Assembly: GCF_000721075.1 (NCBI RefSeq)
Contig: NZ_JOEQ01000005.1
Coordinates: 620,001-684,000 of the forward strand
Direction: 5' to 3'
DNA length: 64,000 nt
DNA from: Streptosporangium amethystogenes
Lineage (GTDB): Bacteria > Actinomycetota > Actinomycetes > Streptosporangiales > Streptosporangiaceae
Shown: piece after piece, positions 33,301-54,059 of the stretch
Layout: every line of letters begins with the position of its first letter
Position numbering within the stretch: position 1 is the first letter of the stretch
Notes under the pieces: generated by a model
The model's database searches: none
Seen by the model: only the letters and a program-made list of their open reading frames with translations
What the model was told of the DNA's origin: nothing
Program-made: the position numbers and the translations under genes

Positions 33301-33938
33301 TCAGGGACCACGACGAGGTGTACGGGCGTTCCCTGCCGTTCGGGGAGCGTCCGGCGCTGATCCTCATCGACCTGATGCGCGCCTACTTCGAGCCGGGCGC
33401 CGAGCTCTACATGGGGTCGCGCGACTGCCTGGACTCGGCCGCGCGGGTCCTGGCCGCCGCCCGTTCGGCGGGCGTTCCGGTGATCCACACCAGGGTCGCG
33501 TTCGGTCCTGACGGCGTCGACGGCGGCCTGTTCTTCCGCAAGGTGGCCCCGTTGCGCCACCTGGTGGACGGTGGCGGGCCGCTCGGCGAGCTGATGCCGG
33601 AGGTCGCGCCCGGACCGGGGGAGACGATGATCGTCAAGCAGTACGCGAGCGCCTTCTTCGGTACGGTGCTGGCCTCGACGCTCAACGCGCTGCGGGTGGA
33701 CACGCTCGTCATCGCGGGCGTGTCCACCAGCGGCTGCGTGCGCGCCACCGCCGTCGACGGGATACAGCACGGGTTCGTGCCGGTCGTGGTGCGGCAGGCG
33801 GTCGGGGATCGCGACCTCCGGCCGCACGAGGCCAACCTGTTCGACATCCAGGCCAAGTACGGCGAGGTGTGGGACGAGGCGGCAGTACTGGAACGGTTCG
33901 CTCCGCCGCGGACCGTGCAGGGGCCGCCGACCGTGTGA
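33297..33938 (+). CDS. Isochorismatase-family cysteine hydrolase (amidase type)
   Basis: The 213-residue enzyme has the Asp-Lys-Cys triad of the family: Asp in LILIDLM, Lys in IVKQYASAFFGT, and Cys in STSGCVRATAVD. The spacing and SGCVRATAVDG match N-carbamoylsarcosine amidase/maleamate amidase-type members rather than true isochorismatases. Maleamate hydrolysis to maleate would link it with the maleate isomerase-like gene at 38585, but this is inference. It is the third gene of the gntR operon and is followed by two terminator hairpins. Confidence 0.85.
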   Translation: MIRDHDEVYGRSLPFGERPALILIDLMRAYFEPGAELYMGSRDCLDSAARVLAAARSAGVPVIHTRVAFGPDGVDGGLFFRKVAPLRHLVDGGGPLGELMPEVAPGPGETMIVKQYASAFFGTVLASTLNALRVDTLVIAGVSTSGCVRATAVDGIQHGFVPVVVRQAVGDRDLRPHEANLFDIQAKYGEVWDEAAVLERFAPPRTVQGPPTV

Positions 33939-36387: not shown

Positions 36388-37308
36388 TCAGTCGAGAGTT
36401 CGGGTATCCGGGGCGGGCGGGAAGTCGCCCGCGCGGCCGAGGAGTGCCGGGAGCGGCGCGCCGAGCCGCTCACCGATGTAGGAGGCGGCTGAGAGCAGTC
36501 GGTCGAGGTCGACGCCGGTGGCGATGCCCGAGCGGCGCAGTGCGTAGGAGAGGTCCTCGGTGGCGATGTTGCCGGTCGCCGCCGGGGCGAACGGGCAGCC
36601 GCCGATCCCGCCGCTGCTCGCGTCGAGTGCGGTGGCGCCCGCCTCGACCGCGGCCAGCGCGTTGGCGTAGCCGGTGTTGCGGGTGTTGTGGAAGTGGAAC
36701 CGCAGCGGCAGGTCGGTGACCTCGCGTACGGCCCCGGTCAGCCGCCGCACGTCGGCGGGCACGCCCACGCCGATCGTGTCGGCCAGCGCGATCTCGTCGG
36801 CCCCGGTGTCCGCGCACCGCCGCACCAGTTCGGCCACGCCGCCGGGGGCCACCTCGCCCTCGAAGGGACAGCCGAAGGCCGCCCCGACGGTCGCGGTGAC
36901 CCGCAGCCCGGCCGCGTGGGCGCGGTCGGCGATCCCGGCGAAGGAGTCCAGCGCCTCCGCGACCGTCATGCCCTGGTTGCGCCGGCAGAAGGTCTCGGTC
37001 GCCACGATCGTGACGTTGACCTCGTCCACCCCCGCGGCCAGGGCCCGGTCCAGGCCGCGCCCGTTGACGATCAGGCCTATGTAGCTGAGCCCGTCGCGCC
37101 GGGGGACGCGGGCCATCACCTGCTCGGCGTCGGCCATCTGGGGGACCAGGCGGGGGTGGACGAAGCTGACCGCCTCGATGCGGGTGAGGCCCGCGTCGGC
37201 CAGTGCCTCGATGTAGGCCACCTTGGCGTCGGTGCCGACCGGGACGGCCTCGTTCTGCAGACCGTCCCGGGGCCCCACCTCAACGATGTTCATGCGGGGA
37301 GAAGACAT
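36388..37308 (-). CDS. Hydroxymethylglutaryl-CoA lyase family enzyme
   Basis: The 306-residue DRE-TIM barrel enzyme has the catalytic VEVGPRDGLQNE near the N-terminus, the metal-binding HFHNT, and the C-terminal GGIGGCPFAPAATGN with the catalytic cysteine. It should cleave a 3-hydroxy-3-methylacyl-CoA (HMG-CoA or a related substituted acid such as citramalyl-CoA) in a divalent-metal-dependent retro-Claisen reaction. Two TTGTATGCAA sites upstream tie it to the GntR at 31364. A start at MNIVEVG (37293) is possible. Confidence 0.93.
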   Translation of the reverse strand: MSSPRMNIVEVGPRDGLQNEAVPVGTDAKVAYIEALADAGLTRIEAVSFVHPRLVPQMADAEQVMARVPRRDGLSYIGLIVNGRGLDRALAAGVDEVNVTIVATETFCRRNQGMTVAEALDSFAGIADRAHAAGLRVTATVGAAFGCPFEGEVAPGGVAELVRRCADTGADEIALADTIGVGVPADVRRLTGAVREVTDLPLRFHFHNTRNTGYANALAAVEAGATALDASSGGIGGCPFAPAATGNIATEDLSYALRRSGIATGVDLDRLLSAASYIGERLGAPLPALLGRAGDFPPAPDTRTLD

Positions 37309-37388: not shown

Positions 37389-38354
37389 CTAGCGCTGTGA
37401 GATCACCGTGACCTTCGGGTCGGAGGCGTCGCCGAAGCCGTAGACGTAGGCCGCGGCCAGGGTGTCACCGAGCGAGGCACGCAGGAACAGCCCGCTCCAC
37501 TTGGCCGCGGCGTCGATGCTCTCCTCCTGCGTCAGCGTCTGCGGGGTGGCGTCGGGAACGGCACCGGCCGGGGTCTGGGTGTCGGTGAGACCGAAGTGGT
37601 TGGCGCCGGTCACCGTGATGAGCGCCTTGGGCGCCGCGCTGAGACCGTTGTAGGTCGCCAGGGCCGCCGCCGGCAGGTTGTTGCCGTCCAGGCCGCCCTG
37701 GACGAGGGCGACCGGTACCCCGGCGTTGGCGATCGGGACGGCGCCGCCGCCGGGCGTCGCCGTGCTCGCGCCGTAGAACACCGCCGCGCGCAGCGCCGCG
37801 GGGCGCTGGTAGACGGGCCCGAAGCAGAACGGGACCGTGCAGGTGTTGCCGATGGCGAACAGCCCGGCGGCCCCGCCGAAGGAGTGCCCGAGCAGGACCA
37901 GCCGGTTGGCGTCCAGCCGTCCGGCCACCGGGGAGCCCGCGCGGGCGTTCTCCGCCGCCGCCCACGTCGCGGCGGCGTTGGTCTGGGACTGCTCGGGGAA
38001 GAGCCCGGAGACCGGGCCGACGGTGCGCTGGTGGTTCGGGACGGCCACGGCGAAGCCGAAGCCGGCGACGATCTTGGCGAATTCGCCGTAGCTCTCCTTG
38101 GGCACGTTCGCGCCCTGCAGGAGCAGGGCGACCGGCAGGGGGGTCTGGGTGGCCGGGTAGTAGACGGTGGCCGGGTCGTTGCCGATCTGCGTCTCGTACT
38201 GGCCGACCCAGGAGGGCGACGTCAAGGTGGACGCGGTGGACGCGGTGGCGCCGTTGGCGAGGGCCGCCGACGGCGTCAGCGCGGTCGCCACGGTGAGCGC
38301 CGCGGCGACCAGCCCGGCGCGAATCCGCCGAGTGGATTTAGTGGAAATAGACAT
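37389..38354 (-). CDS. Secreted chlorophyllase-like alpha/beta hydrolase
   Basis: The 321-residue protein has a Sec signal peptide (MSISTKSTRRIRAG, then a hydrophobic core ending ALA). The mature part begins with TVYYPATQTPLPVALLLQGA, the strand/oxyanion segment of the chlorophyllase/dienelactone-hydrolase-like group, and has the nucleophile serine in LLGHSFGGAAGL. VALVQGGLDG and TGANHFGLTD supply the Asp and His regions. Plant chlorophyllases use GHSRGG and remove phytol from chlorophyll; here an extracellular ester substrate is likely. GGAGGAAGC precedes the ATG. It is the first gene after the large operon, separated by the tandem repeat. Confidence 0.75.
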   Translation of the reverse strand: MSISTKSTRRIRAGLVAAALTVATALTPSAALANGATASTASTLTSPSWVGQYETQIGNDPATVYYPATQTPLPVALLLQGANVPKESYGEFAKIVAGFGFAVAVPNHQRTVGPVSGLFPEQSQTNAAATWAAAENARAGSPVAGRLDANRLVLLGHSFGGAAGLFAIGNTCTVPFCFGPVYQRPAALRAAVFYGASTATPGGGAVPIANAGVPVALVQGGLDGNNLPAAALATYNGLSAAPKALITVTGANHFGLTDTQTPAGAVPDATPQTLTQEESIDAAAKWSGLFLRASLGDTLAAAYVYGFGDASDPKVTVISQR

Positions 38355-38430: not shown

Positions 38431-38604
38431 GTGGGGTGGCAGGGAGGCGGGTCCCTGGTGTTCGCGCGGCCGGGGTGAGGTGGTCGAGGCCGGGCCCTCG
38501 GTGCTCGCGCGGCGGGAGTGGGGTGGCAGGGAGGCGGGTCCCTGGTGTTCGCGCGGCCGGGGTGAGGTGGTCGAGGCCGGGCCCTCAGTGCTCGCGCAGC
38601 AGCC
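38431..38604. repeat. 87-bp tandem duplication overlapping the 3' end of the operon
   Basis: Two units of 87 bp (38431-38517 and 38518-38604) are identical for 69 bases and 79 of the first 80. The second unit includes the last codons and stop of the maleate isomerase-like gene (38585), so the first unit is a copy of the gene end plus its downstream flank. It looks like a recent tandem duplication. No hairpin-like terminator was evident in the unit. Confidence 0.85.
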
Positions 38605-39328
38605 GGCCCGCGCCGTAGACCTTGTCCTCGACGCCGTTGTCGCGCAGTGCCATCCACCAGGTGGCGGCGTTGATGGCGATGACCGGCTTGCCGAGCCACC
38701 GCTCGGCCTCGTCGGCCAGGCCGACCATGGACAGGTTGGTGCCACACTGCACGATCGCGTCCACGTCGGGGGAGTTCACCTCGATCAGCGCCTCACGCAG
38801 GGTGGATTCGGTGACGTGCGCGATCGACACGGCCGTGGGGCACTTCAGACCCTCGATGGCGACCACGTCGAAACCGATCTCGGAGAAGAAGCGCACCACG
38901 TTCTCGTCGCCGACCGGCTGGTAGGGGGTGACCACGCCGAGCTTGCGCGCGCCGTACAGGTTCAGCGCCCGCTCGCACGCCTCCGCGCCGGTCGCCACCT
39001 TCAGGCCGGTGAGGTCGTGGATCTGCTTGACGAACTGCCGGTTGCCCTCGACACCGCCCCAGAAGGTCTCGGCGGACATGCCCATCACCATGTAGTCCGG
39101 CTCGCAGGTCATCACCCGCTCGCAGGCCGAGCCGATCTCCTCGCGGATCTGGTCGAGCAGGCGCTCCATGCCCTCGTTCCCGGCCATGTTCTGGTCGTGG
39201 ATGTGGATGCGGCTGAAGTGCGCGGTGACCCCGGGAACGGTCATCCGGTAGAAGTCCGGCTCCACGATCGTGTTGGTGGACGGGGCGATCACGCCGAACT
39301 TGCGGCGCCAGCCGAGCGCGTCGGTCAT
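38585..39328 (-). CDS. Maleate isomerase/arylmalonate decarboxylase family enzyme
   Basis: The 247-residue Asp/Glu racemase-superfamily protein begins with RRKFGVIAPSTNTIVEPDFY, typical of maleate cis-trans isomerase and arylmalonate decarboxylase. Candidate catalytic cysteines lie in MTCEPDYMVMGMSAETFWGG and VQCGTNLSMV. Maleate isomerase converts maleate to fumarate; a substituted maleate is equally possible. The start overlaps the membrane protein stop as ATGA, and it is the last gene of the nine-gene operon. Confidence 0.82.
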   Translation of the reverse strand: MTDALGWRRKFGVIAPSTNTIVEPDFYRMTVPGVTAHFSRIHIHDQNMAGNEGMERLLDQIREEIGSACERVMTCEPDYMVMGMSAETFWGGVEGNRQFVKQIHDLTGLKVATGAEACERALNLYGARKLGVVTPYQPVGDENVVRFFSEIGFDVVAIEGLKCPTAVSIAHVTESTLREALIEVNSPDVDAIVQCGTNLSMVGLADEAERWLGKPVIAINAATWWMALRDNGVEDKVYGAGRLLREH

Positions 39329-39957
39329 CGTACGGCCTCCAGCCGTCGGGGGCGGCACAGCCGGAACGCGGCGATCGCGAACCCGGCCTGTGCCGCGCTG
39401 TTGGACAGTTGTTCGACCCACTGCAGGGCCAGCGTCTGGTCGGGCCTGGCGGCCAGCGGGCTGAGGATGAAGAACCCCAGGAGCTGCAGGCCGAACAGGG
39501 CGGCGGTGAGCGGGTCGCGGTTCCGCTGGGCGGCCAGGATCAGGTGGACGCCACTGAGAGTGGCGAAGACCGTGGTGCTGACCAGCAGTGGCAGCATGCC
39601 CCCGGCCAGCGCGGCGCCACCCGCGCACAGCAGGGACAGGCCGATCACCAGCGGCGGGATCCACTGGGGCGTCCGGGAGTGGTGGTGGCTGACCAGGATC
39701 CAGGCCAGCAGCCCGAACCCGGCGGTGAGCAGCGGGAACAGCAGTTGCTCCAGCCAGGTCACGTCCGGGCCGCCGAGCGCGACGGTGAGCTTCCATGACG
39801 CCTTGGCCAGCCCGCCGGCGCAGATGAGAACCGCGGCGAGCAACACACCCGGCCGGGATCTGGCGTCCACATGCCGGGTGAGCAGGGTGACACCGCACGT
39901 CGTCAGCACGACGGGGACGAAGTCCTCCACCGCGAGGGGGACGGGGTACTCGATCAC
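39325..39957 (-). CDS. Integral membrane protein of the operon
   Basis: The 210-residue protein has six to seven hydrophobic helices, including VPVVLTTCGVTLLTRHV, LLFPLLTAGFGLLAWILVSH, WIPPLVIGLSLLCAGGAALA and TALFGLQLLGFFILSPLA. Several histidines cluster after the fourth helix (SHHHS). GTG 39957 overlaps the stop of the SDR gene (GTGA). No named family is recognised; a carrier or membrane redox role would suit its operon but is speculative. Confidence 0.75.
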   Translation of the reverse strand: MIEYPVPLAVEDFVPVVLTTCGVTLLTRHVDARSRPGVLLAAVLICAGGLAKASWKLTVALGGPDVTWLEQLLFPLLTAGFGLLAWILVSHHHSRTPQWIPPLVIGLSLLCAGGAALAGGMLPLLVSTTVFATLSGVHLILAAQRNRDPLTAALFGLQLLGFFILSPLAARPDQTLALQWVEQLSNSAAQAGFAIAAFRLCRPRRLEAVR

Positions 39958-40718
39958 GGGATCACCCGGCGTTTCGAGAAGGGGGCCGAGGCGAACCGGG
40001 CGAGGATCTTGCCCTGGGTCAGCCAGCGGACGTGGGCGCCGTTGCGGGTCCGGGTCAGCGCCTGCTCCGCGAGCCACGGGGTGACGGTCTCGACCCGGTC
40101 GGCCAGGATGTTGAAGATCCGGGCGGCCTTGGCCAGCTCATCCGGTGTGTAGTCGTGGGTGAGCAGGTCGGTGACGACCATGCCGGGGCTGAGCAGGCCG
40201 ACCGAGACACCGGGCGGCACCTCCTTGGCGAGTGCCAGGGTGAGGTAGGTCACCGCCCGCTTGCTCGCGCCGTAGACGGACAGACCGGCGACCGTACGGC
40301 CGTCGCTGCCCAGACCCTCCATGTTCCACACGTGGCCGCGGCCCTGCTCGATCATCCCGGTGATGGCGACCGCGCTGCCGTTGACCACACCGGTCAGGTT
40401 CACGTCGACGACCGCCGACGCCTCGGTGGCCGGGAGCTCCCAGAGCGGCGCGCGTGTCTGGGAGATCCCGGCGTTGTTGATCCAGATGTCGACGGAGCCG
40501 AACCGGTCGACGGCCGCGTCCCACAGCGCCTGAACCTGGGTGCGGTCGGCCATGTCCGCCGCCATCCCCAGTACCCGATCGCTGTCCAGCGCGGCCAGCG
40601 CCTTCTTGACGGACTCGTCGGTACGGCCACAGAAGGCGACTCGCTGATCCCGGGAGAGGAGCTCCCTGACCAGCCCGAGCCCGATGCCCCTGGTGCCGCC
40701 CGTCACGACTACGACCAT
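39954..40718 (-). CDS. SDR closely resembling chlorophyll(ide) b reductase (NOL/NYC1)
   Basis: The 254-residue short-chain dehydrogenase has VVTGGTRGIGLGLVRELL for NADPH binding, INNAG and the catalytic YGASK. Beyond generic SDR motifs, it shares with plant NOL/NYC1 the serine-region VWNMEGLGSDG (plant: FNMDGAGSGG), LSPGMVVTDLL, FNILADRVETV and WLTQGKIL. Those enzymes reduce the 7-formyl of chlorophyll(ide) b to 7-hydroxymethyl as the first committed step of chlorophyll b breakdown. The resemblance is from memory of the plant sequences, not a computed alignment. Start ATG 40718 lies within the previous gene's last codons (10-bp overlap). Confidence 0.82.
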   Translation of the reverse strand: MVVVVTGGTRGIGLGLVRELLSRDQRVAFCGRTDESVKKALAALDSDRVLGMAADMADRTQVQALWDAAVDRFGSVDIWINNAGISQTRAPLWELPATEASAVVDVNLTGVVNGSAVAITGMIEQGRGHVWNMEGLGSDGRTVAGLSVYGASKRAVTYLTLALAKEVPPGVSVGLLSPGMVVTDLLTHDYTPDELAKAARIFNILADRVETVTPWLAEQALTRTRNGAHVRWLTQGKILARFASAPFSKRRVIP

Positions 40719-41632
40719 CGAAGTACCCCGTGGACGACGGCGGACAGCACGTTGCCGTCGAACAACTCGTAGACGACCGCCATCGTCTTGCCGGCGCTCA
40801 TCCCCGGAGTGGCGTCGATCATGAACTCGCGGCCCTTGAGCTTCCAGACGTCACGGAAGTGCAGGCTCGAGTAGTTCGCCCTGCCGTACGCCTGCGCGTT
40901 GCCCCAGGCCTCGGGACCCTCGTAGAAGGACCGGAAGCCGTCACGCCGCACCTCGACGGTGTGGCGGCGGTCCAGGGCTCCGGACCAGGTGACGTGGTGG
41001 CGGGCCCGCAGCAGATCCAGCGGTTCCACCTCGACCGTGACGTCCACGGTGCCGCGCGGCTTCTGGTCGGCGCCGAAGACCTCGCAGGTGCCGGAGAAGG
41101 CGCCCGGGGTCTTGGTGGGCAGGATGTGGGGCACCGGCCCGTTCCGGGTCTCGGCCGCCAGCCAGTCCGCCACCTTGGCGGGGTCCCGGGTGTAGAGGCC
41201 GTTGAAGCAGCCGACCACGGCGGGACCCTGGTAGAGCATCGAGGAGTAGACCTGGATGTCCTCGTCGGCGAGGACCTGGTTCCAGGTGTTGAGGTCCACC
41301 TGCCAGCCGGGGCCGTAGTAGTGGGAGTCGACGAAGGAACCGTACGGCTGGCCGGTGCCGTAGAAGTCGGGGCCGGTGTAGACCCGGTTGGCGTCGGAGT
41401 CGACGACGCCGAACGCGAACGGGGCACCCAGCCGGAACCTTCCGGCCAGGGGGCCGCCGCCCTCCAGGCCGCCGTCCATGTAGTAGGTGGTCACGCCGTC
41501 GACGAAGTCCGAGGAGCGGCGGATGTCCTCGTATCCCTGCCAGGTGCCGGTGGCGTCGAACAGGGAGGGGCGGCCGTGCCACTCTCCGGCGATGCGCCGC
41601 TGCCATTCGCTGGGTTGCGTCGTGTCGGTCAC
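40709..41632 (-). CDS. Unrecognised 307-residue protein, two calycin-like halves
   Basis: I do not recognise this family. The protein starts IAGEWHGRPSLFDATGTWQG, and the second half restarts near GAFSGTCEVFGADQKPRGTV, giving two beta-rich repeats with many Gly, Tyr and Trp residues (TTYYMDGGLEGGG, DSHYYGPGW, RANYSSLHF). The alternating strand pattern and short hydrophilic turns suggest a duplicated lipocalin-like barrel such as bilin lyases or DUF3598 proteins have; this is only a fold guess. No signal peptide. Its GTG start overlaps the stop of the bilin-reductase-like gene (GTGA), so it is made with the pathway enzymes. A tetrapyrrole-binding or carrier role is a testable idea. Confidence 0.75.
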   Translation of the reverse strand: MTDTTQPSEWQRRIAGEWHGRPSLFDATGTWQGYEDIRRSSDFVDGVTTYYMDGGLEGGGPLAGRFRLGAPFAFGVVDSDANRVYTGPDFYGTGQPYGSFVDSHYYGPGWQVDLNTWNQVLADEDIQVYSSMLYQGPAVVGCFNGLYTRDPAKVADWLAAETRNGPVPHILPTKTPGAFSGTCEVFGADQKPRGTVDVTVEVEPLDLLRARHHVTWSGALDRRHTVEVRRDGFRSFYEGPEAWGNAQAYGRANYSSLHFRDVWKLKGREFMIDATPGMSAGKTMAVVYELFDGNVLSAVVHGVLRWS

Positions 41633-42336
41633 GAGATCAGTTCTCCACGTACGAGGTCGGACTGTTCCGCGCCGATGAGCCGGGTGACCTGGTGCCAGAC
41701 CGGGTCCACCTCCGGACTGAACAGGTTGGCCCGGTTGGCCGTGTCCCGGGCGGCGAGGTCGGTGTCACCCTGATCCGGCACACCGGTGTCGAGCAGGCTC
41801 AGCCAGTGGTCGAGGTAGGTGTCGACGGTCGGGCCGAGCTTCGCGAAGGCATCCTCGGTGGCCCGGCAGACCACCATCCAGGGGGACATCATCGCCCGCT
41901 GGCGGGGGCCGATCGCGGCGGGGGAGACGCCGTCGATCTTCCAGGCGGCCTCCAGCGGCTCCGTCAGCGGCAAGAAGCAGGCGTCCAGGTACTCCAGATG
42001 GGTCGCCAGTTCGAGGCGGGGAATCAGGTCCAGGTGCATGGCGTGATAGTCGGCCGAGGCGACCGCGTCCAGCGTGAAGTGCGGCACCGCCGACTCCGGC
42101 CCGGTGAACGCGAAGATCATGTGACTGTCGAGCTTGATCATCGGCACCACCAGGCTGACCGACACCACCTTCTCCAGGCCGGTGCCCGCCGGGGCCGCCG
42201 GGGAGAAGGTACGGAGCCGGCCCACCGGGGCGGGCGACATCGGGCTGGTCAGCTCGGTGTCGGCAAGCGGGGTCAGCTCGGTGGCGGCGATCAGGCGGTC
42301 GAGCACGCGCTCATTTAGCGATGCGGGCAGACTCAT
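41629..42336 (-). CDS. Ferredoxin-dependent bilin reductase-like protein (first of two)
   Basis: The 235-residue protein contains SHMIFAFTGPESAVPHFTLD, ASADYHAMHLDLIPRLELAT, YLDACFLPLTEPLEAAW and MMSPWMVVCRATEDAFAKLG, followed by TVDTYLDHWLSLLD. The order of a central strand ending in HLDLIPR, a DY-type loop, a SPW-VxCRA strand and a helix with YLxxxLxL parallels ferredoxin-dependent bilin reductases and the related red chlorophyll catabolite reductase. These enzymes reduce open-chain tetrapyrroles without a cofactor of their own. The assignment rests on motif order, not a search. Its start lies inside the 3' end of the Rieske gene (26-bp overlap), with GGAG 11 bases upstream. Confidence 0.6.
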   Translation of the reverse strand: MSLPASLNERVLDRLIAATELTPLADTELTSPMSPAPVGRLRTFSPAAPAGTGLEKVVSVSLVVPMIKLDSHMIFAFTGPESAVPHFTLDAVASADYHAMHLDLIPRLELATHLEYLDACFLPLTEPLEAAWKIDGVSPAAIGPRQRAMMSPWMVVCRATEDAFAKLGPTVDTYLDHWLSLLDTGVPDQGDTDLAARDTANRANLFSPEVDPVWHQVTRLIGAEQSDLVRGELIS

Positions 42337-43453
42337 CGATCTTTTCTCCTCGGGCTTTGTGCACCCAGGCGCGGGCGAGTTCGGGGTTGTCGCGACGGGC
42401 GGGGGAAGGCACGACGGTGGCCTCCCTGCGCGGCCCGTCACCGGTGATGATGTCGTCGCCGCCGATCCACCAGCCCTGGTCGATCAGCTGCTGACGGCGG
42501 CGGCGGTAGGCGACCTGGAGCGCGTCGCTGCGCAGGTGCAGCTCGGCCGACAGGTCGAAGGGCAGCAGTTCGGGCCGCTGGTTCTCGACGACCGGGCGGT
42601 CCTGCTCGAAGATCCTGCTGATGCGCTTCATCGCGTTGGCGTCGGCCCACGCGCCGGTGAAGAAGTTACGGTAACCGACGATCTTGACCAGTGTCCGGTT
42701 CTGGCCGAGCGGGATGTTGTGGTCGTAGAGGATCAGGTCGCCGAACGGCAGCCGTACGTGCAACTTGACGATGTTGGGCAGGTACCAGCCGTTGCTGACC
42801 GTGACGTGCTCGGCGCGTTCCTTGCGTCTGGCCAGCGCGCCCCACAGGCCCTTGGGCAGCGGCGGGCTGAGCAGGATGTCGGCCTCGGCGTGCCAGTCGT
42901 CACCGGTGATCTCGTAGTCGGGAATCGCCGGCTTGTCGGGGTTGCCGAACGCGGTTCCGTGCACGAACGGTGTGTGCGCCGCGTCGACGACGTTCTCCAG
43001 CGTGCGCTCGTAGTTGGCCTCCACCGTCGTCTGCCAGTAGACGGCCCGAAACGCCGGATCGTCGTGCTGGGGGATGTGCGGGATCGGCGGCCGCTCCTCC
43101 TCGGGCAGATCGCCGATGAAGATCCACACCATCCCGTACCTCTCGGCCACCGGGTAGGAGTCCACCCGTGCCTTGCGGGGGATGCCCCTGCCCTCGGGGT
43201 TGGCCGGGATCTTCACGCACGTCCCGTCGGGCTCGTACTCCCACCCGTGGTAAGGGCAGGTGATGCGCTCCTCGTCGACCAGGTAACCCATCGACAGCGC
43301 GGCGCCGCGGTGGACGCACAGGTCCGATAGGCAGGCCACCTGCCCGTTTCTGCGCCGCCACAGGACGAAGTCCTGCCCGACGCAGGTCACCTTGCGCGGC
43401 TGTCGCCCCACCTCGTGAGCGAACTCGACCGCGTACCAGAAATTTTTCAGCAT
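42311..43453 (-). CDS. Rieske non-heme iron oxygenase, PaO/vanillate demethylase-like
   Basis: The 380-residue oxygenase has the Rieske [2Fe-2S] ligands in CVHRGAALSMG and CPYHGWEYEPDG, and the mononuclear iron site in ENVVDAAHTPFVHG (two His) with an aspartate expected further on. The N-terminus FWYAVEFAHEVG is typical of the PaO/vanillate O-demethylase/Tic55 group. In plants PaO opens the pheophorbide a ring to red chlorophyll catabolite. No ferredoxin or reductase gene is in the operon, so electrons must come from elsewhere. AGGAG overlaps the stop of the preceding hydrolase gene, 9 bp before the ATG. Confidence 0.88.
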   Translation of the reverse strand: MLKNFWYAVEFAHEVGRQPRKVTCVGQDFVLWRRRNGQVACLSDLCVHRGAALSMGYLVDEERITCPYHGWEYEPDGTCVKIPANPEGRGIPRKARVDSYPVAERYGMVWIFIGDLPEEERPPIPHIPQHDDPAFRAVYWQTTVEANYERTLENVVDAAHTPFVHGTAFGNPDKPAIPDYEITGDDWHAEADILLSPPLPKGLWGALARRKERAEHVTVSNGWYLPNIVKLHVRLPFGDLILYDHNIPLGQNRTLVKIVGYRNFFTGAWADANAMKRISRIFEQDRPVVENQRPELLPFDLSAELHLRSDALQVAYRRRRQQLIDQGWWIGGDDIITGDGPRREATVVPSPARRDNPELARAWVHKARGEKIDESARIAK

Positions 43454-43462
43454 GTCCTTCTC

Positions 43463-44374
43463 CTAGCGGCGTCGTAGGCCAGGCAGGCCATCGAGTTCCG
43501 ATCGGGCGTGGCCGTCACCGCACAGGTGTGTTCGTAGAAACGTAGTGATCAGTTGAGTGAGGGCCGGTTGAGGTTCGGTACTGGCCGGCAGATCCAGGAA
43601 GGCCCGTGCGGCGGTGGGATCCACCGGGTCGGCGATCCCGAAGTGGTTGGCCCCCTCGATGACGGCCAGCAGATTGGAGCCGTCCCGGTCGGGAAGTGCC
43701 TCGTCGAAGGTGCGGGTGACGGGATCGGCGGGGTGCTCCTCCTGACCGTACCGATCCGAGCTGCCCATGATCACGCCATCTCTGGTGCCGACCGAGAGCA
43801 GGACCGGGCAGTCCACCTGGGCGGGTACCACGGTTCCCGCGGGCCAGCCCAGCATGGTGGCCACCATGGTGTGCGCGCCATAGGCGAACACGGCCTTGAC
43901 CTCGGGGAAGTACCGGGCCGACTGCAGGACCAGGGAGCCGCCCGCCGAGTGCCCGCCGAGTGCGACCCGCTCCAGGTCGACGGCGCCCTTCAGCAGGTCG
44001 ATCTCGGCCAGCGCGGACAGGACCGCCGGGATCGCCGGGCAGGTCGGGCGCGAGCCGTAGCTTCCGGGCCGGGCGGCGTCCAGGTCGACGCCGGGCGTCA
44101 GCCCGTACTCGCCGCCGAACAACTCGCCCACCCGGTCGAAGGTCACGCAGACGAACCCGGCGGTCGCGATCTCGGTCGCGAGCCACCGGTAGGCGTCCTG
44201 ACCCACGTTGATCCCGGACAGGAACAGCACCACCGGGTACGGCCCGCCTGCAGGCCGGAACACCCCGGTCAGCCGGTCGCCGTCCGGTTCGGCCGGGTAG
44301 TACACCTTCAGGTGCGCGGTGTCGAACGGAGACTCGCCGCCGGTCTTCGCCGCCCACCACAGCGATCGGATCAC
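43463..44374 (-). CDS. Cytoplasmic chlorophyllase-like alpha/beta hydrolase
   Basis: The 303-residue enzyme lacks a signal peptide. LKVYYPAEPDG, GPYPVVLFLSGINVGQDAY and ATAGFVCVTFDRV match the chlorophyllase N-terminal strand and oxyanion segment, and ALGGHSAGGSLVL carries the nucleophile serine. The acid and histidine are in SVGTRDG and EGANHFGIAD; the same GANHFG motif occurs in the secreted relative at 37389. A GTG start overlaps the stop of the RCCR-like gene (GTGA). It would remove an ester-linked alcohol such as phytol from a tetrapyrrole or another ester, inside the cell. Confidence 0.78.
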   Translation of the reverse strand: MIRSLWWAAKTGGESPFDTAHLKVYYPAEPDGDRLTGVFRPAGGPYPVVLFLSGINVGQDAYRWLATEIATAGFVCVTFDRVGELFGGEYGLTPGVDLDAARPGSYGSRPTCPAIPAVLSALAEIDLLKGAVDLERVALGGHSAGGSLVLQSARYFPEVKAVFAYGAHTMVATMLGWPAGTVVPAQVDCPVLLSVGTRDGVIMGSSDRYGQEEHPADPVTRTFDEALPDRDGSNLLAVIEGANHFGIADPVDPTAARAFLDLPASTEPQPALTQLITTFLRTHLCGDGHARSELDGLPGLRRR

Positions 44375-45177
44375 GTGGGCCTCGGCAGCACGCGGTCGCC
44401 GCCCCACAGTGCCCGCACCAGTCTGCCGGTCATCTCCTCGCCGAAGTAGCGCACCCCCATCACGTTGGCCGGGTCACGATCGGCGATGTTGCGCCGGATC
44501 GCCAGGTCGGTCGCGGCCAACGCGGGCCGGTCGGCCTCGGGCACCGGCTCCGCCTCGTCCACCCAGCGCAGCCAGTCGTCAACGCGGGCGTGTAGCAGCT
44601 CGCGGACCGCGTCGATGTGCTGCTGGGCGCGGGGGAAGGAGTAGCAGTAGGCGTTGGAGGACAGGCTCTCGCGGATGAACCCGGCCCGGCTGGTGAACCA
44701 GGTGAAGTCCGGATTCTCCTCCTTGAACCGTAGCCAGTCGGCGTCCAGCGGCGCATAGTGGCGGTCGTAGTGCTCACCCTGCTCGACCAGATTCACCCGC
44801 GGGATGAAGTCCTGGTAGAACCAGCCCTCCGGCCAGACCAGCAGCGCGATGCCCAGGTGCGGCACGTTGACCTGCGGGCCCAGCCAGACGGTCAGGTGCA
44901 GGTTGGCGAAGCTCGCCTTCGGGTTGCCCAGCCAGGAGTGGACCATCCAGTCGATCTCCGGCCCGGTGTAGGCCTCGATCCGGCCGCCGGGCCCCTCAGG
45001 ATAGGTGCCGTAGCTGTCGAACTCCTCGCTGGAGGGGTCTCGGGTCAGCTCGAACCTGGCGTCGATCTTCGCCTTGAGTTCGGCGAGCACCGTCTGCAAC
45101 CGCTCGAACGTCTCGGTGACGTCGATGGTCGGAGACTCGTCGAGCATCTGCTCGACGTACTGCAAGGTTTCCTTCAT
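44371..45177 (-). CDS. Red chlorophyll catabolite reductase-like protein (second bilin reductase-like)
   Basis: The 268-residue length equals mature plant RCCR. The segment WFYQDFIPRVNLVEQGEHYD then RHYAPLDADWLRFKEENPDF lines up with the plant sequence around LDLPPRKDLVLHPDYLKTFY, and FIRESLSSNAYCYSFP corresponds to its strand with YIRSVLSPTA. The N-terminal half has PEIDWMVHSWLGNPKASFAN and HLTVWLGPQVNVPHLGIALL, the beta-sheet core of the bilin-reductase fold. Plant RCCR reduces the C20/C1 bond of red chlorophyll catabolite using ferredoxin. Alignment is by eye. ATG 45177 overlaps the nitrilase stop (ATGA). Confidence 0.68.
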   Translation of the reverse strand: MKETLQYVEQMLDESPTIDVTETFERLQTVLAELKAKIDARFELTRDPSSEEFDSYGTYPEGPGGRIEAYTGPEIDWMVHSWLGNPKASFANLHLTVWLGPQVNVPHLGIALLVWPEGWFYQDFIPRVNLVEQGEHYDRHYAPLDADWLRFKEENPDFTWFTSRAGFIRESLSSNAYCYSFPRAQQHIDAVRELLHARVDDWLRWVDEAEPVPEADRPALAATDLAIRRNIADRDPANVMGVRYFGEEMTGRLVRALWGGDRVLPRPT

Positions 45178-46808
45178 GACGTTCCTTCCTGAAGTGCGTC
45201 CACCAGCCGCCACGGCCTGCCGTCCACCAGGTCGGTGCCGCGTGAGACGTGCCGGTTGACGGCCTGCGCCGGGTAGACGTCGGCGCGTACCACGTGGTCG
45301 CCGTTCTTGACCGGGGTGACGATCGGGTGGCTGATGCGGCCGCTGAACGGGCCCTCCCAGGCGGTCCAGAGGGTGAAGTCGCGCGGGGTGGCCAAGATGG
45401 CCCCGGCCAGGCCGGCCGGTCCGTCGTGGCCGGCGGCTACGACGTTGAGCCGGTTCTCCGCGGCCCGTTCCAGCAGGCCGTACTCCAGCTCCCAGGCCTC
45501 GGACGGGGTGAACGGCACCGCGACGACGTCCGCGTCGGCCAGCGCCGCCAGCCTGAACGTCTCGGGGAACAGGGCGTCGTCGCCGACGATGACGGCGAGC
45601 CGGCCCCAGGGCAGTTCGAAGATCTCCAGGCCGTCGCCCAGCGAGGTGACCCGCCCGGCGTGCCGGGTGACGGGGTGCAGGGCCCGCTGCCGTCCCACGA
45701 CCCCCTCGCCCGAGATCAGCAGTCCCTCGTGCGCCCCCTGGCGGATCTCGCTGAGCACCACGTGCGCCGCGGTCCCGCGGACGGCTCGCGCCGCCTCCTC
45801 GGCGCTCACCCCGCACAGCTCGGGGAGCACGATCAGTTCCGCTCCGCCCGCGGCCGCCTGCCCGATGAGCTCTTCGGCGGTGCCCGGCTCGTCGCGGGGT
45901 CTGACCACGGCCGCGGTCAGGCGCTCGGCTCCGGCGGGTGCCCGGCGGCCGCGGGGCTCGGCGGCGATCGGTCCGTAAAGGGCGGGGCGGCGGGCGGTGA
46001 GGATGTCCGTGCCGTCGGGGCGGAGCTTGGAGTCGGCGAGGGGCACGTCGATGTCGGCGACGACCACGGCCTCGCCGGTCCGCGGTGCTCTGGCCACGAC
46101 CGTGCCGTCCGGGGCGACGATCTGGCTCTCGCCCGCGCCGTGCAGCCACTCCGGCGGGACGCCGAGCCCGGCGCCGACGGACTCCAGCATGTCGGCGGGG
46201 ATCAGCGGCCCGACCTTGTTGGCGGCGACCACCCACACCTTGTTCTCCGCGGCGCGGACCGGGATGTGCAGGCTCGCCTCGTCCACGGCGAACGAGTTCA
46301 GGCTGTTGAGCAGCACCTGCGCACCGCGTAGCGCCAGCCCGCGGGTGACCTCGCTGATCACGCCCTCCATGCAGGCGTACATGCCGAGCCGCCCGAGTTC
46401 GGTCGAGATCACCGGGCCCACGGCCGTCCCGGGATCGAGGTGGTCGTTCTCCGCGCCCATCAGGGTCTGCTTGTCGGCCTCGCCGAGGAGGGCACCGTCC
46501 GGGCCGTAGAGCAGGGAGGCGCCGGTGGTGCGCCCGTCCTCCCGGGCGAGGGTGACACCGATCTTGACATACGCGCGGTGTCTGGCGGCCCGCTCGGAGA
46601 TAGCGGTGAGAAACGGGTCCCCGTGGCGACAGGCCAGTCGCCGGGCGTGCGCGCGGTCCTCGTACCAGGACAGGTGGTTGCAGAACTCGGGCAGCACGAT
46701 CAGCTCGGCCCCCTGGGCCGCGGCCGAGTCGATCGCACGCAGGCAGGCAGCCAGGTTGACGGCCGGGTCACGGCCTGCCTCCAACTGCGCCGCGGCGACA
46801 CGTACCAT
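45174..46808 (-). CDS. Tandem two-domain nitrilase-superfamily protein, second domain degenerate
   Basis: The 544-residue protein has two carbon-nitrogen hydrolase domains. Domain 1 (about 1-265) carries the Glu-Lys-Cys triad: Glu41 in VLPEFCN, Lys113 in GEADKQTLMG and Cys146 in GMYACMEGV. Domain 2 (about 290-540) keeps the fold and the glutamate in VLPELCGV, but the cysteine site reads VIVGDDALFPE where ICYD is usual, and the lysine is not evident, so it is probably inactive. Domain 1 likely hydrolyses an amide or nitrile. ATG 46808 was preferred to GTG 46814 because GAGGAG then lies 5 bases upstream. It is the first gene of the operon, expressed from the divergent region with the repeated promoter module. 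Confidence 0.85.
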   Translation of the reverse strand: MVRVAAAQLEAGRDPAVNLAACLRAIDSAAAQGAELIVLPEFCNHLSWYEDRAHARRLACRHGDPFLTAISERAARHRAYVKIGVTLAREDGRTTGASLLYGPDGALLGEADKQTLMGAENDHLDPGTAVGPVISTELGRLGMYACMEGVISEVTRGLALRGAQVLLNSLNSFAVDEASLHIPVRAAENKVWVVAANKVGPLIPADMLESVGAGLGVPPEWLHGAGESQIVAPDGTVVARAPRTGEAVVVADIDVPLADSKLRPDGTDILTARRPALYGPIAAEPRGRRAPAGAERLTAAVVRPRDEPGTAEELIGQAAAGGAELIVLPELCGVSAEEAARAVRGTAAHVVLSEIRQGAHEGLLISGEGVVGRQRALHPVTRHAGRVTSLGDGLEIFELPWGRLAVIVGDDALFPETFRLAALADADVVAVPFTPSEAWELEYGLLERAAENRLNVVAAGHDGPAGLAGAILATPRDFTLWTAWEGPFSGRISHPIVTPVKNGDHVVRADVYPAQAVNRHVSRGTDLVDGRPWRLVDALQEGTS

Positions 46809-46823
46809 CTGCACTCCTCAACT

Positions 46824-46899
46824 GTTACGGCTAGAGAAACAGTGTTTCCTAGACATAGGATCTCGCGAAACCGGAGGAAATGTCTAGGAGTCAATCGTG
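46824..46899 (+). promoter_or_regulatory. Repeated promoter module, copy 2
   Basis: This copy ends at the GTG of the Dabb gene and closely matches 34699-34773. It contains the perfect palindrome GAAACA-G-TGTTTC (46836-46848) and a perfect 9-bp inverted repeat CCTAGACAT/ATGTCTAGG (46848-46856, 46880-46888) whose right arm joins the ribosome-binding site. TAGGAT (46856-46861) is a likely -10. It lies only 15 bp before the start of the large divergent operon, so the operator may control both directions. Confidence 0.72.
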
Positions 46900-47178
46900 C
46901 TGACCCATGTGGTGCTGATGAAGTTCGTCGATCCGAGGGATGCGCCGAAGGCGAAAGAGTTGCTGGAGGGCATGGGAGGCAGGGTCGAGCAGATCCGGGA
47001 TCTCACCGTCTGGCTGGACGTGGTCGGGTCGCCGGTCTCCTACGACCTGTGCATGATCACGCGGCACGAGTCCCTCGACGAACTGCGCGGTTACCAGGGA
47101 CATCCGGCGCACCTCGAGGTGGCGGGCTGGCTCCGTCCGAGGCTCGAAGCTCGTGCCGTGGTGGACCATGTTCCGTGA
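46897..47178 (+). CDS. Dabb (stress-responsive alpha/beta barrel) domain protein
   Basis: The 93-residue ferredoxin-like barrel starts LTHVVLMKFVDPRDAPKAKE and has WLDVVGSPVSYDLCMITRHESLDEL and YQGHPAHLEV, the strands and the conserved histidine pair of Dabb/EthD-like proteins. Members act as small dimeric enzymes (cyclases, decarboxylases) or accessory factors. GTG start with AGGAG 7 bases upstream, directly behind the repeated promoter module and divergent from the large operon, so it is probably co-regulated. Confidence 0.85.
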   Translation: MLTHVVLMKFVDPRDAPKAKELLEGMGGRVEQIRDLTVWLDVVGSPVSYDLCMITRHESLDELRGYQGHPAHLEVAGWLRPRLEARAVVDHVP

Positions 47179-47343: not shown

Positions 47344-48081
47344 TCAGGCACCGGGGACGGCCGCGACCAGTGCCCTGGTGTAGTCGTGCGAGGGCCGGCC
47401 GAGCACCTGCTCGGCCGGCCCTGTTTCGACCAGCCGACCGGCGTGCATCACCGCGACCCGATGGGCGACGGCGCTCACCACTGCCAGGTCGTGCGAGATG
47501 AACAGGTAGCCCAGGCCGCGCTCCTCCTGCAGCCGGAGCAGCAGGTTGATGATCTGGGCCTGCACCGAGACGTCCAGGGCGGTGACCGGCTCGTCGAGCA
47601 CCAGCAGGTCGGGGGAGAGGGCCAGCGCCCTCGCGATACCCACCCGCTGCCGCTGCCCGCCGGAGAGCCGGTGCGGGTGGCGACCCGCGAGTTCCGGGTC
47701 CAGACCCACCTCGGAGAGCAGGCCGGGCACGTCCCCGCGTACGTCCTGCAGACGCAGCGGCTCCCGCACGATCTCCCCGACCGTCCAGCGCGGATTCAGC
47801 GAGGTGGAGGGATCCTGGAAGACGAGCTGGAAACGGGACCGCAGCGGGCGCAGCCGCCGGCGTGACAGAGGGGCCAGCTCCACCCCGTCCAGGCGCACGC
47901 TCCCACCGGTGGGCTGCGTCAGCCGCGCGACGCACCGGGCCAGCGTCGACTTCCCGCAGCCGGACTCACCCACGATCGCGAGCGTCTCGCCCCGGTCGAC
48001 CTCGAACGTCACACCGTCCACCGCGCGCAGCGCGCCGTAGCTCTTGGACAGGTTCGTGACGCGGAGCAGCGGTTCAGTCAT
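47344..48081 (-). CDS. Peptide/nickel-type ABC importer ATPase (DppF-like)
   Basis: The 245-residue ATPase shows Walker [10 protein letters not shown], the Q-loop [20 protein letters not shown], signature [15 protein letters not shown], Walker [13 protein letters not shown] and switch SHDLAVV. It is slightly shorter than usual DppF (about 320), lacking most of the C-terminal oligopeptide extension. ATG 48081 overlaps the preceding ATPase gene by 8 bp. It is the last gene of the five-gene dpp-type operon. Confidence 0.92.
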
Positions 48082-48988
48082 CCCGCACCGCCCAGCAGGC
48101 CACGCCGCCGACGAGCGGCGGGGTCTCTTTCGCACAGCGGTCGAGCGTGACGGGACAGCGGGGATGGAACGCGCAGCCGGGTGGTCGCGACTTCGGCGCG
48201 GGCGGATACCCGGGGATCACCGGCAGCGGCCCCCGGCCCGTGCCGACCCGCGGCCGGGACCGCATGAGCGCGGCGGAGTAGGGGTGGCGGGGCGTGCCGA
48301 GGACCTCCTGTACGGTTCCCGTCTCTACCAGGCGGCCGGCGTACATCACCGCGATCCGGTGCGCGGCCTCGGCGACGAGGCCGAGGTCATGGCTGACGAG
48401 CACGGTCGCCGCTCCTGTCTCCCGCTGCGCGGTACGCAGCACCCGCATGACCTGCTCCTGGACCGTGACGTCCAGAGCGGTGGTGGGCTCGTCCGCGATC
48501 AGCAGCGACGGCCGCAGTGCGATGGCCATCGCGATCACGATCCGCTGCCGCTGCCCGCCGGAGAGTTCGTGTGGATACCTCCCGGCCCGCTCCGGGCCGA
48601 GGTCGACCTGCTCCAGCAGCTCCGCGGCCCGCCGCCGCGCCTCGCTGCGGCTCACACCGTGGATCCGCAGCACCTCCGAGATCTGCGTGCCGACCCGCAT
48701 GAGCGGGTTGAGCGACGTCGCGGGGTCCTGGAAGACGAAGCCGATCCGGCGTCCCCTGAGCCGTTCGAGCCGGGCCGCGGTGAGCTCGGTGCCGTCCAGG
48801 ACGGCCGTCCCCCCGGCGACCCTGGCGGGGCCGGACAGCAGACCGGCCACCGCGAGCATGGTCATCGTCTTGCCGGAGCCCGACTCGCCGACCATACCGA
48901 GCACCTCGCCCGGCCGTACCTCGAAGGAGACGCCGTCCACGATCCGCACGTCGCCGGCGGTCACCACCAGGTCCTTCACCTCAAGCAT
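48074..48988 (-). CDS. Peptide/nickel-type ABC importer ATPase (DppD-like)
   Basis: The 304-residue ATPase has [10 protein letters not shown] (Walker A, Met in place of the usual second Thr), [45 protein letters not shown] and the C-terminal oligopeptide extension with the cysteine cluster GCAFHPRCP and RCAKE that binds an iron-sulfur cluster in DppD. ATG 48988 overlaps the permease stop by 8 bp. Confidence 0.93.
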
Positions 48989-49808
48989 GGTCGTCCATCC
49001 GAACGTCGAGGGCGTCACGGAGTCCGTCGCCCAGCAGGTTGACCAGGAGCACGGTCAGGGTGAGCGCCAGTCCCGGCCACAGCGGGATCCACCAGGCCGT
49101 CTCCAGCAGTTCGCGCCCGTCGCTGAGGATCGTGCCCCAGGAGGGGGCGGGGGGACGCACGCCCAGACCGAGGAAGGACAGGCCGCCCTCGACGAGCACC
49201 ATCGTGCCGACCACGAAGGTCCACATCACCAGGTTGGCGCCGGCCACCGCGGGCAGCAGATGCCGGGTCAGCACGCTCAGGTGACCGGCGCCCGCACCGA
49301 CCGAGGCCGCCACGTAGTCCTCTCCCCTGACCTGCTTGACGATCGTCCGGGTCACCCTGGCGGAGGTGACCCAGCCGGCCAGGGTGAGCAGCGTGATCAG
49401 AACAGGGGTCGAGGAGCCCACGACACCGATGGTCGCGATCGCCAGCACGAGGAAGGGGAAGGCGATCCACAGGTCGCCCAGCCCCATGATCAGCCGGTCG
49501 ATCCAGCCGCCGAGGTAGCCCGAGAGCAGCCCCACCACGATTCCCACCGCGCAGGCCAGGGTGCTGGCCGCGAAGCCCACCAGCAGCGAGGTCCGCCCGC
49601 CCACCAGGACGCGCGCCAGCAGATCGCGGCCGAGCTGGTCGGTACCGAGGGGATGACCGGCCAGCGCGCCCTCCATCCAGAACGGCGGCGCCAGTTTGGC
49701 CGGCAGATCCTGCTCCAGCGCGTCCACGCCGAGCAGGAGCGGCCCGACCGCCACGGCGAGCGCGATCAGCACCAGTCCCGCCAACGCGATCCGCACCGAC
49801 GGCCTCAT
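48981..49808 (-). CDS. Peptide/nickel-type ABC importer permease (DppC-like)
   Basis: The 275-residue permease has six helices, the N-terminal extracytoplasmic GHPLGTDQLGRDLLARVLVG typical of DppC, and the EAA loop EDYVAASVGAGAGHLSVLTR. ATG 49808 overlaps the DppB-like stop (ATGA). The frame remains open upstream only because of codon bias. Confidence 0.93.
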   Translation of the reverse strand: MRPSVRIALAGLVLIALAVAVGPLLLGVDALEQDLPAKLAPPFWMEGALAGHPLGTDQLGRDLLARVLVGGRTSLLVGFAASTLACAVGIVVGLLSGYLGGWIDRLIMGLGDLWIAFPFLVLAIATIGVVGSSTPVLITLLTLAGWVTSARVTRTIVKQVRGEDYVAASVGAGAGHLSVLTRHLLPAVAGANLVMWTFVVGTMVLVEGGLSFLGLGVRPPAPSWGTILSDGRELLETAWWIPLWPGLALTLTVLLVNLLGDGLRDALDVRMDDHA

Positions 49809-53993: not shown

Positions 53994-54042
53994 CGGATCT
54001 CCCTGCGCGGACTCTTGCCCCGCGGTCGTACGGACGAGACGA

Positions 54043-54059
54043 GGGCCCGCCCCGGGCCC
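54043..54059. terminator. Short G+C hairpin between the aldehyde dehydrogenase genes
   Basis: GGGCCCG-CCC-CGGGCCC is a perfect 7-bp stem in the 205-bp gap between the upstream aldehyde dehydrogenase gene and the next one. It may attenuate read-through. The gap holds no supported gene. Confidence 0.4.

What the first reader, a model, noticed from the sequence alone, without database searches (positions are those of the whole stretch)
38585..46808. Operon resembling the plant chlorophyll breakdown pathway in an actinomycete
Nine minus-strand genes overlap or nearly touch. They include an SDR with NOL/NYC1-specific motifs, a chlorophyllase-like hydrolase, a PaO-like Rieske oxygenase and two proteins with RCCR/bilin-reductase motif order: one counterpart for most steps of plant chlorophyll b catabolism (only Mg-dechelatase has none here). 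Each enzyme class alone is common; together in one operon they point to degradation of chlorophyll or a related tetrapyrrole, which I do not know as a described bacterial gene cluster. Soil actinomycetes on leaf litter would benefit.
Basis: partly seen in the sequence, partly recalled or inferred. Interest (0 to 1): 0.95.

Follow-up and report, generated by a model that had tools for sequence, protein, structure and literature searches.

The report
Likely bacterial chlorophyll-breakdown operon
A nine-gene block conserved in many actinomycetes holds two relatives of the plant enzyme that reduces chlorophyll's red breakdown product, close to an oxygenase, and likely lets these bacteria take apart chlorophyll-type pigments, a job for which our searches found no described bacterial gene set.

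Summary
Nine minus-strand genes (38585-46814) overlap or nearly touch; 72 of 80 related loci (the best 80 of 215) keep at least 8 of the 9 on one strand in the same order. Two genes belong to the red-chlorophyll-catabolite-reductase/bilin-reductase superfamily: RCCR-A passes Pfam's RCC_reductase cut-off and its profile finds Arabidopsis RCCR best among PDB sequences (3.6e-17); RCCR-B is its only other match in the genome (3.4e-9). A Rieske oxygenase lies between them. The SDR aligns end to end with plant NOL (36%). A lipocalin-like protein has the DUF3598 fold.

The Rieske is VanA-type, not PaO family (0 of 17). The "chlorophyllase" is below cut-off and was not found in four more distant clusters, which keep nitrilase, RCCR-A, Rieske, RCCR-B and mostly the lipocalin-like gene. 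Nearby CoA-transferase, HMG-CoA-lyase-like, isochorismatase-like and aldehyde dehydrogenase genes suggest a degradation regulon rather than a copy of the plant route. Best reading: catabolism of a chlorophyll-derived tetrapyrrole, confidence 0.55; substrate and every reaction are untested. Haem-bilin or non-tetrapyrrole substrates are not excluded.

The parts
45174..46814 (-). NIT: double carbon-nitrogen hydrolase (nitrilase superfamily); the second domain seems to lack the active-site Cys
   Evidence: PF00795 7.9e-45; Cys positions; 78 of 80 loci; 4 of 4 distant RCCR-A clusters
44371..45177 (-). RCCR-A: RCC_reductase-family protein
   Evidence: PF06405 29.6 bits against cut-off 24.9; profile against PDB: Arabidopsis RCCR 3.6e-17, PebB 9.2e-9; AlphaFold model pLDDT 88.5; Foldseek RCCR 2.0e-10, PebB 2.5e-10
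43463..44374 (-). ABH: alpha/beta hydrolase, GHSxGG serine motif, dienelactone-hydrolase/chlorophyllase/PETase-like
   Evidence: PF01738 8.4e-6; PF07224 23.6 bits, under its cut-off of 26; GHS.GG in 77 of 77
42311..43453 (-). Rieske non-haem iron oxygenase, VanA type
   Evidence: PF19112 2.3e-24, PF00355 7.7e-24; Rieske and iron-ligand motifs in 79 of 79; closest solved: SxtDIOX, SxtT, NdmA, DdmC
41629..42336 (-). RCCR-B: divergent paralogue of RCCR-A
   Evidence: A1 profile hit 3.4e-9 in the whole genome, the only one besides RCCR-A; profile-profile 8.5e-15; best PDB hit RCCR 0.0015; PF06405 13.4 bits, under cut-off
40709..41632 (-). LIPO: two-barrel lipocalin-like protein with DUF3598 fold, predicted ligand binder
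39954..40718 (-). SDR resembling plant chlorophyll(ide) b reductase NOL
   Evidence: 36% identity, 134 bits to Populus NOL; NMEGLGSDGR and LSPGMVVTDLL stretches align with NOL; rank 2 of 54 NOL matches in the genome
39325..39957 (-). TM: small protein read as a membrane protein from its hydrophobic sequence, no Pfam match
   Evidence: 54 of 80 loci
38585..39328 (-). AMD: arylmalonate-decarboxylase/maleate-isomerase superfamily; Gly at the AMDase Gly74 place, Cys195-Gly196 kept
   Evidence: PF17645 74.4 bits; PDB maleate isomerase 6.9e-12, AMDase 1.5e-9; QCGTNL in 78 of 78, MGMSAETFWGG in 74 of 78
37389..38354 (-). Predicted secreted chlorophyllase/PETase-like hydrolase next to the operon (accessory)
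   Evidence: PF07224 30 bits over cut-off 26, PF12740 31.4 over 28; a separate relative in 11 of 80 loci (14 hits, 3 of them on ABH); signal-like N terminus read by eye
36388..37308 (-). HMG-CoA-lyase-like enzyme (accessory)
   Evidence: NF004283 323.8 bits over cut-off 246; next to CaiB and RCCR-B in L100, next to CaiB in L087 and L099; 8 of 80 loci
33297..33938 (+). Isochorismatase-family amidohydrolase (accessory)
   Evidence: PF00857 2.7e-35; also in L100 and L099, 4 of 80 loci
31993..33189 (+). CaiB-type CoA-transferase (accessory)
   Evidence: PF02515 1.9e-129; 61-65% identity in L087, L099, L100, 39% in L086; 5 of 80 loci
46897..47178 (+). Dabb alpha/beta-barrel protein, divergent (accessory)
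   Evidence: PF07876 8.7e-16; 52 of 80 loci
47344..52281 (-). Peptide/nickel-type ABC importer genes with substrate-binding protein 50755-52281 (possible uptake system)
   Evidence: SBP_bac_5 7.9e-57; close relatives in only 2 of 80 loci, L020 and L027; permease and ATPase genes named by eye
52560..58254 (-). Two aldehyde dehydrogenases, acyl-CoA-dehydrogenase-type flavin enzyme, flavin reductase fused to an HMGL-like domain (accessory)
   Evidence: of 80 loci: ALDH1 72, ALDH2 72, ACAD 54, flavin reductase 36
58471..59268 (+). IclR regulator (candidate regulator)
   Evidence: PF01614 7.5e-48; 36 of 80 loci

Best explanation
This is a conserved actinobacterial catabolic operon that likely takes apart chlorophyll-derived tetrapyrroles. 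Shown: nine tightly packed, co-conserved genes, two of them RCCR/bilin-reductase-superfamily paralogues on either side of a Rieske oxygenase with all its ligand motifs (RCCR-B directly, RCCR-A one gene away). Inferred order of events: an ABC importer or other route brings in a de-phytylated pigment such as pheophorbide or a plant phyllobilin; the NOL-like SDR reduces or oxidises a side-chain carbonyl/alcohol (as NOL does at C7); the Rieske oxygenase opens or oxygenates the macrocycle; RCCR-A and RCCR-B make successive ferredoxin-dependent two-electron reductions of the open chain; the lipocalin-like protein holds the coloured, light-sensitive intermediate; the hydrolase removes an ester and the AMDase-like enzyme decarboxylates the acid this exposes (for example at C13(2)); nitrilase, isochorismatase-like, CoA-transferase and HMG-CoA-lyase-like enzymes carry the pyrrole-derived amides and small dicarboxylates into central metabolism. 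Each of these reactions is a prediction.
For: RCCR-A over PF06405 cut-off; profile best hit in PDB is Arabidopsis RCCR at 3.6e-17, ahead of PebB 9.2e-9 and HY2 0.0078. RCCR-B: only other profile match in the genome, best PDB hit RCCR, profile-profile 8.5e-15, and Asp in PHFT-x-D at the place of AtRCCR Glu154 in 79 of 79 (Glu154 recalled). Order kept in 72 of 80 loci. The four more distant RCCR-A clusters keep nitrilase, Rieske and RCCR-B in 4 of 4, lipocalin-like in 3 of 4, and one (L100) joins them to CaiB, HMG-CoA-lyase-like, isochorismatase-like, ALDH and an AMD-family gene in one run. SDR-NOL similarity over the full length. Lipocalin-like fold, with nitrobindin, CpeS lyase and UnaG among its weaker matches. 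The RCCR/FDBR enzymes whose activity I know act on open-chain tetrapyrroles, and the related CPOX fold on a porphyrinogen (recalled knowledge).
Confidence: 0.55

Rival explanations
1. The operon degrades haem-derived or other bilins (biliverdin, phycobilins) rather than chlorophyll: the macrocycle is already open when it arrives, and the Rieske enzyme hydroxylates or demethylates the linear chain.
For: The genome has a haem oxygenase (185.6 bits). RCCR-A's model is nearest to PebB and HY2 by VIA Z. RCCR-B has an Asp at the Glu154 place, where bilin reductases have theirs (equivalence recalled). VanA-type Rieske enzymes are often hydroxylases/demethylases (recalled knowledge; one search lists such enzymes as closest solved).
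Against: By sequence profile RCCR is clearly nearer than any bilin reductase in the PDB. No haem oxygenase was seen among the Pfam-scanned operon and neighbour proteins; the one in the genome lies 152 kb before the window. SDR resembles chlorophyll(ide) b reductase.
Confidence: 0.2
2. The operon degrades a non-tetrapyrrole nitrogen compound; the RCCR-like proteins have taken on a new reductase job and the likeness to plant chlorophyll breakdown is partly coincidence of common enzyme classes.
For: Nitrilase, AMDase-like, SDR, ALDH, flavin monooxygenase-type, CaiB and HMG-CoA-lyase-like enzymes are common in catabolic clusters (recalled knowledge). RCCR-A lacks an acid at the Glu154 place. Rieske not PaO. 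The RCCR fold also occurs in a plastid motor complex.
Against: Two RCCR-superfamily genes with a Rieske gene between them are among the most constant parts; the RCCR/bilin-reductase fold is kept; the lipocalin-like fold has haem- and bilin-binding barrels among its weaker matches.
Confidence: 0.2
3. The operon is biosynthetic: it tailors a tetrapyrrole- or pyrrole-type natural product.
For: Rieske (SxtT/SxtDIOX are the closest solved), SDR and AMDase-like enzymes also occur in tailoring; actinomycetes make many products (recalled knowledge).
Against: No PKS, NRPS or other scaffold-building gene among the Pfam-scanned operon and neighbour proteins; importer-type binding protein, CoA-transferase, HMG-CoA-lyase-like enzyme and IclR regulator suit catabolism.
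Confidence: 0.05

Closest known systems
Plant PaO/phyllobilin pathway of chlorophyll breakdown (PaO, RCCR, NOL/NYC1)
   Same: Rieske oxygenase, RCCR-family reductase and NOL-like SDR in one operon
   Different: Rieske of another family; two RCCR paralogues, not one; added nitrilase, AMDase-like, lipocalin-like, CoA-transferase and lyase genes; no Mg-dechelatase seen (blind)
Arabidopsis red chlorophyll catabolite reductase (3agb, 2zxk)
   Same: Best PDB hit of the RCCR-A profile, 3.6e-17, and of the RCCR-B profile; same fold
   Different: 16-20% identity in the structural alignments; RCCR-A lacks the acid at the Glu154 place (Glu154 recalled)
Bacterial pre-PcyA bilin-reductase clusters (PMC10151467; abstract and passages read)
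   Same: RCCR/FDBR-superfamily genes in gene clusters of non-photosynthetic bacteria
   Different: Pre-1 and pre-3 clusters typically carry globin-type, V4R and Fe-S proteins and a haem oxygenase, pre-2 a B12-binding protein and a globin; none of these was seen among the scanned proteins here
Nostoc punctiforme RCCR-domain pair Npun_R3277/R3279 (PMC2716323; passages read)
   Same: Two RCCR-family genes side by side in a bacterium
   Different: Phototroph; what lies between or around them was not looked at here
Bacterial SGR homologues, e.g. Anaerolineae Mg-dechelatase (PMC8531759; passages read)
   Same: A plant chlorophyll-breakdown enzyme family in non-photosynthetic bacteria; the paper calls its physiological relevance unknown
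   Different: Other step; no cluster is described in the passages read
Arylmalonate decarboxylase / maleate isomerase (AMD gene)
   Same: PF17645; Cys195-Gly196 aligns with a Cys-Gly of AMDase
   Different: Far below the NCBIfam AMDase cut-off (64.3 against 225 bits) and the EutA cut-off (73.6 against 318)

Membership tests
RCC_reductase (PF06405) | Score over the curated cut-off, RCCR-A | tested here: met
   29.6 against 24.9 bits
RCC_reductase (PF06405) | Same, for RCCR-B | tested here: not met
   13.4 bits; 17 of 21 RCCR-B members match at E up to 1, best 3.3e-5. Homology to RCCR-A is shown, so it is filed as a superfamily paralogue, not as RCC_reductase
RCCR/FDBR superfamily | Fold shared with RCCR, PebB, HY2, PcyA | tested here: met
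   for RCCR-A; RCCR-B was not folded
Plant-type RCCR as enzyme | Acidic residues at AtRCCR Glu154 and Asp291 (recalled) | tested here: inconclusive
   RCCR-A: Ala at the Glu154 place in 76 of 80 loci, 4 not read; Asp235 invariant in 26 of 26. RCCR-B: Asp at the Glu154 place in 79 of 79. Residue roles recalled; place in the chain worked out by me
Plant-type RCCR as enzyme | Ferredoxin-dependent reduction of red chlorophyll catabolite | not testable with these tools
   needs assay
PaO (PF08417) | PaO C-terminal domain | tested here: not met
   no match at E up to 1 in any of 17 members; VanA_C in 17 of 17
VanA-type Rieske oxygenase | Rieske plus VanA_C domain with ligand motifs | tested here: met
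   motifs in 79 of 79
Chlorophyllase (PF07224), ABH gene | Score over cut-off | tested here: not met
   23.6 against 26 bits
Chlorophyllase (PF07224), neighbour 37389-38354 | Score over cut-off | tested here: inconclusive
   30 against 26 bits, but the PETase model scores higher (31.4)
NOL/NYC1 chlorophyll(ide) b reductase | Full-length similarity and shared motifs | tested here: inconclusive
   36% identity and motifs shared; motif N-x-x-G-x-GS-x-G in 62 of 79 SDRs and 114 of 120 NOLs; rank 2 of 54 in the genome; no NOL model among the 25 of 212 NCBIfam matches shown
AMDase superfamily (PF17645) | Score over cut-off | tested here: met
   74.4 against 25.9 bits
DUF3598 | Fold of 2o62 | tested here: met
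DUF3598 | Sequence match to a Pfam model | tested here: not met
   no DUF3598 match for 21 members at E up to 1; filed by fold only
SGR Mg-dechelatase (PF12638) | Presence in the genome | tested here: inconclusive
   no match, but nothing rang in the controls either; the same kind of search missed RCCR-A

The most novel reading that the evidence does not exclude
The first gene set for bacterial mineralisation of chlorophyll: an actinobacterial operon that arrived at the plant logic (Rieske oxygenase opens the ring, RCCR-family reductases quench the red product) with a different Rieske lineage and a two-reductase relay, then goes on past the plant's end point to feed the pyrrole units into central metabolism. 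Plant RCCR and NOL would then have non-photosynthetic bacterial catabolic relatives, as has been proposed for SGR.
Probability: 0.45. Interest if true: 0.93.

Novelty: new variant of a known kind. Interest (0 to 1): 0.82.

Why it matters
Chlorophyll is made and lost on a huge scale, yet nothing our searches listed names a bacterial gene set that finishes its breakdown in soil and water. This operon gives a defined, co-conserved set in named actinomycete species, with enzymes that can be tested directly. It would also bear on where the plant degreening enzymes RCCR and NOL came from.

Tried and rejected
PaO membership of the Rieske was rejected. ABH as a chlorophyllase was not upheld, nor ABH as part of the wider core (0 of 4 distant RCCR-A clusters, each read over 17 to 20 kb). 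A plain two-Cys maleate isomerase reading of AMD was set aside because MGMSAETFWGG has Gly at the AMDase Gly74 place (residue roles recalled), although the HMMER alignment to 2xed pairs AMD Cys75 with what I recall as the first isomerase Cys. PF06405 and PF12638 family searches of the own genome rang nowhere, not even for RCCR-A, so they say nothing. Plasmid search for RCCR-A: no match. Foldseek put RCCR first; VIA puts PebB and HY2 slightly ahead, so I rest the RCCR link on sequence profiles. The idea that the pathway ends in maleimide/maleate-like pieces rests only on enzyme classes (isochorismatase-like, AMD, CaiB, HMG-CoA-lyase-like). The profile of the lipocalin-like family found nothing in the PDB by sequence. 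Whether Nostoc Npun_R3278 is a Rieske was not looked up. Flank gene calls by my GC-frame script are partly wrong-frame, so flank counts come from tblastn.

Full report
Observation. The window lies in a 9.44-Mb, 229-contig genome whose closest named RCCR-A relative in the protein search is from Streptosporangium (91%). Nine minus-strand genes fill 38585-46814 with overlaps of 4 to 26 bases and one gap of 9 bases. Beside this run lie a predicted secreted hydrolase and an HMG-CoA-lyase-like gene downstream and a peptide/nickel-type ABC importer upstream.

Rieske. 42311-43453 has Rieske and VanA_C domains and ligand motifs (79 of 79); none of 17 family members matches the PaO domain. Closest solved enzymes are SxtDIOX, SxtT, NdmA and DdmC. 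A ring-opening role would be convergence with PaO; it is inferred from its place between the reductases.

SDR. The window SDR aligns to Populus NOL over its whole length at 36% identity and 134 bits, sharing N-M/I-E/D-G-x-GSDGR, LSPGMVxTDLL and the C-terminal LT...RF stretch. Searched with that NOL, the genome gives 54 matches; the window SDR is second (3.6e-33), behind one at C5:30941 (1.8e-37) and well before the third (1.6e-19). Of the four best, only the window SDR has the NxxGxGSxG motif. Across loci the motif is in 62 of 79 SDRs and LSPGM-x-x-TDLL in 65 of 79; in the 120 NOLs they are in 114 and 119. The operon SDR is nearer to the C5:30.9-kb SDR (43%) than to NOL. The likeness is real but not exclusive.

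Conservation. A scan of GTDB species genomes found 215 relatives of RCCR-A; the best 80 were kept, from Streptosporangium, Nonomuraea, Actinomadura, Catellatospora, Micromonospora, Actinoplanes, Dactylosporangium, Nocardia, Streptomyces and others. In these 80: RCCR-A 80, SDR 79, RCCR-B 79, Rieske 79, AMD 78, LIPO 78, NIT 78, ABH 77, TM 54. 72 of 80 hold at least 8 of 9 on one strand in order; the other eight are five Nonomuraea loci with TM after AMD, L018 with inverted Rieske and lipocalin-like genes, L051 on a 5.7-kb contig, and L027 with RCCR-A alone. The locus is patchy: 19 of 297 genomes of the family and 3 of 396 drawn over the phylum match, own genome counted in both. In another class of the phylum 5 of 296 genomes match: four hold RCCR-A, and all four also hold nitrilase, Rieske and RCCR-B; three hold LIPO, two an AMD-family gene, one SDR, none ABH or TM in the 17 to 20 kb read; the fifth (L101) holds only an RCCR-B relative. 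RCCR-A was not found on plasmids.

Wider regulon. The same families, the FAD monooxygenase apart, lie in the window: CaiB 31993, isochorismatase-like 33297, HMG-CoA-lyase-like 36388, Dabb 46897, two ALDHs, ACAD-like, with flavin reductase and IclR genes. In the 80 loci ALDH1 72, ALDH2 72, ACAD 54, Dabb 52, flavin reductase 36, IclR 36, but HMG-CoA-lyase-like only 8, CaiB 5, isochorismatase-like 4 within the up to 10-kb flanks. This looks like degradation to small acids.

Mechanism. I commit to chlorophyll-derived tetrapyrrole catabolism, 0.55. The strongest link is that two RCCR-superfamily genes travel with a Rieske gene; in plants PaO and RCCR act in sequence (recalled, and stated in passages of PMC2716323). 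NOL-likeness and the lipocalin-like fold add weight. Against: Rieske family, the structural near-tie between RCCR and bilin reductases, missing acid in RCCR-A, a haem oxygenase in the genome, the importer's rarity beside the genes. The haem-bilin and non-tetrapyrrole rivals are each put at 0.2.

Literature. Ten searches of the held PMC library listed no paper that by title or abstract start describes a bacterial cluster of this kind; lists were capped (for example 15 of 156, 15 of 46, 15 of 61, 12 of 17) and subscription papers are mostly not held. Passages read: PMC10151467 uses RCCRs and related sequences as outgroup to bilin reductases of heterotrophic bacteria; PMC2716323 reports two RCCR-domain genes side by side in Nostoc; [quoted passage not shown] in PMC4950323 the terms for bacteria and microbes occur only in the reference list. 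Databases already name some single proteins 'Red chlorophyll catabolite reductase', so the gene-level label is not new; the operon-level picture is what is new here.

Noticed in passing
window 35503-36315: AMP-binding-ligase-like remnant (named by eye) spread over three short minus-strand ORFs in different frames; a 504-aa relative lies beside the operon in L005.
   Followed up: no
window 56995-58254: Flavin reductase domain joined to an HMGL-like domain in one ORF.
   Followed up: no
window 45174-46814: Second nitrilase domain seems to lack the active-site Cys (its only Cys, 334, lies in the PELC stretch), so one half may be structural.
   Followed up: partly
window 38429-38597: Direct repeat, 87-base unit, 1.9 copies, 98% matches, between the AMD gene and the predicted secreted hydrolase, reaching 13 bases into the end of AMD.
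   Followed up: partly
L027: Nonomuraea corallina has RCCR-A alone near the Dpp-type importer, without the other eight genes in the 20.8 kb held.
   Followed up: no
L101:3768-4508: An RCCR-B relative without RCCR-A or Rieske in the 15.3 kb held, next to a hydrolase-like gene (named by eye).
   Followed up: no
L092:8855-9658 (G000:C5 about 30.9 kb): A second NOL-like SDR elsewhere in the genome, 43% identical to the operon SDR, without the NxxGxGSxG motif.
   Followed up: partly
G000:C5:467355-467954 (L103): Haem oxygenase gene in the same genome.
   Followed up: no
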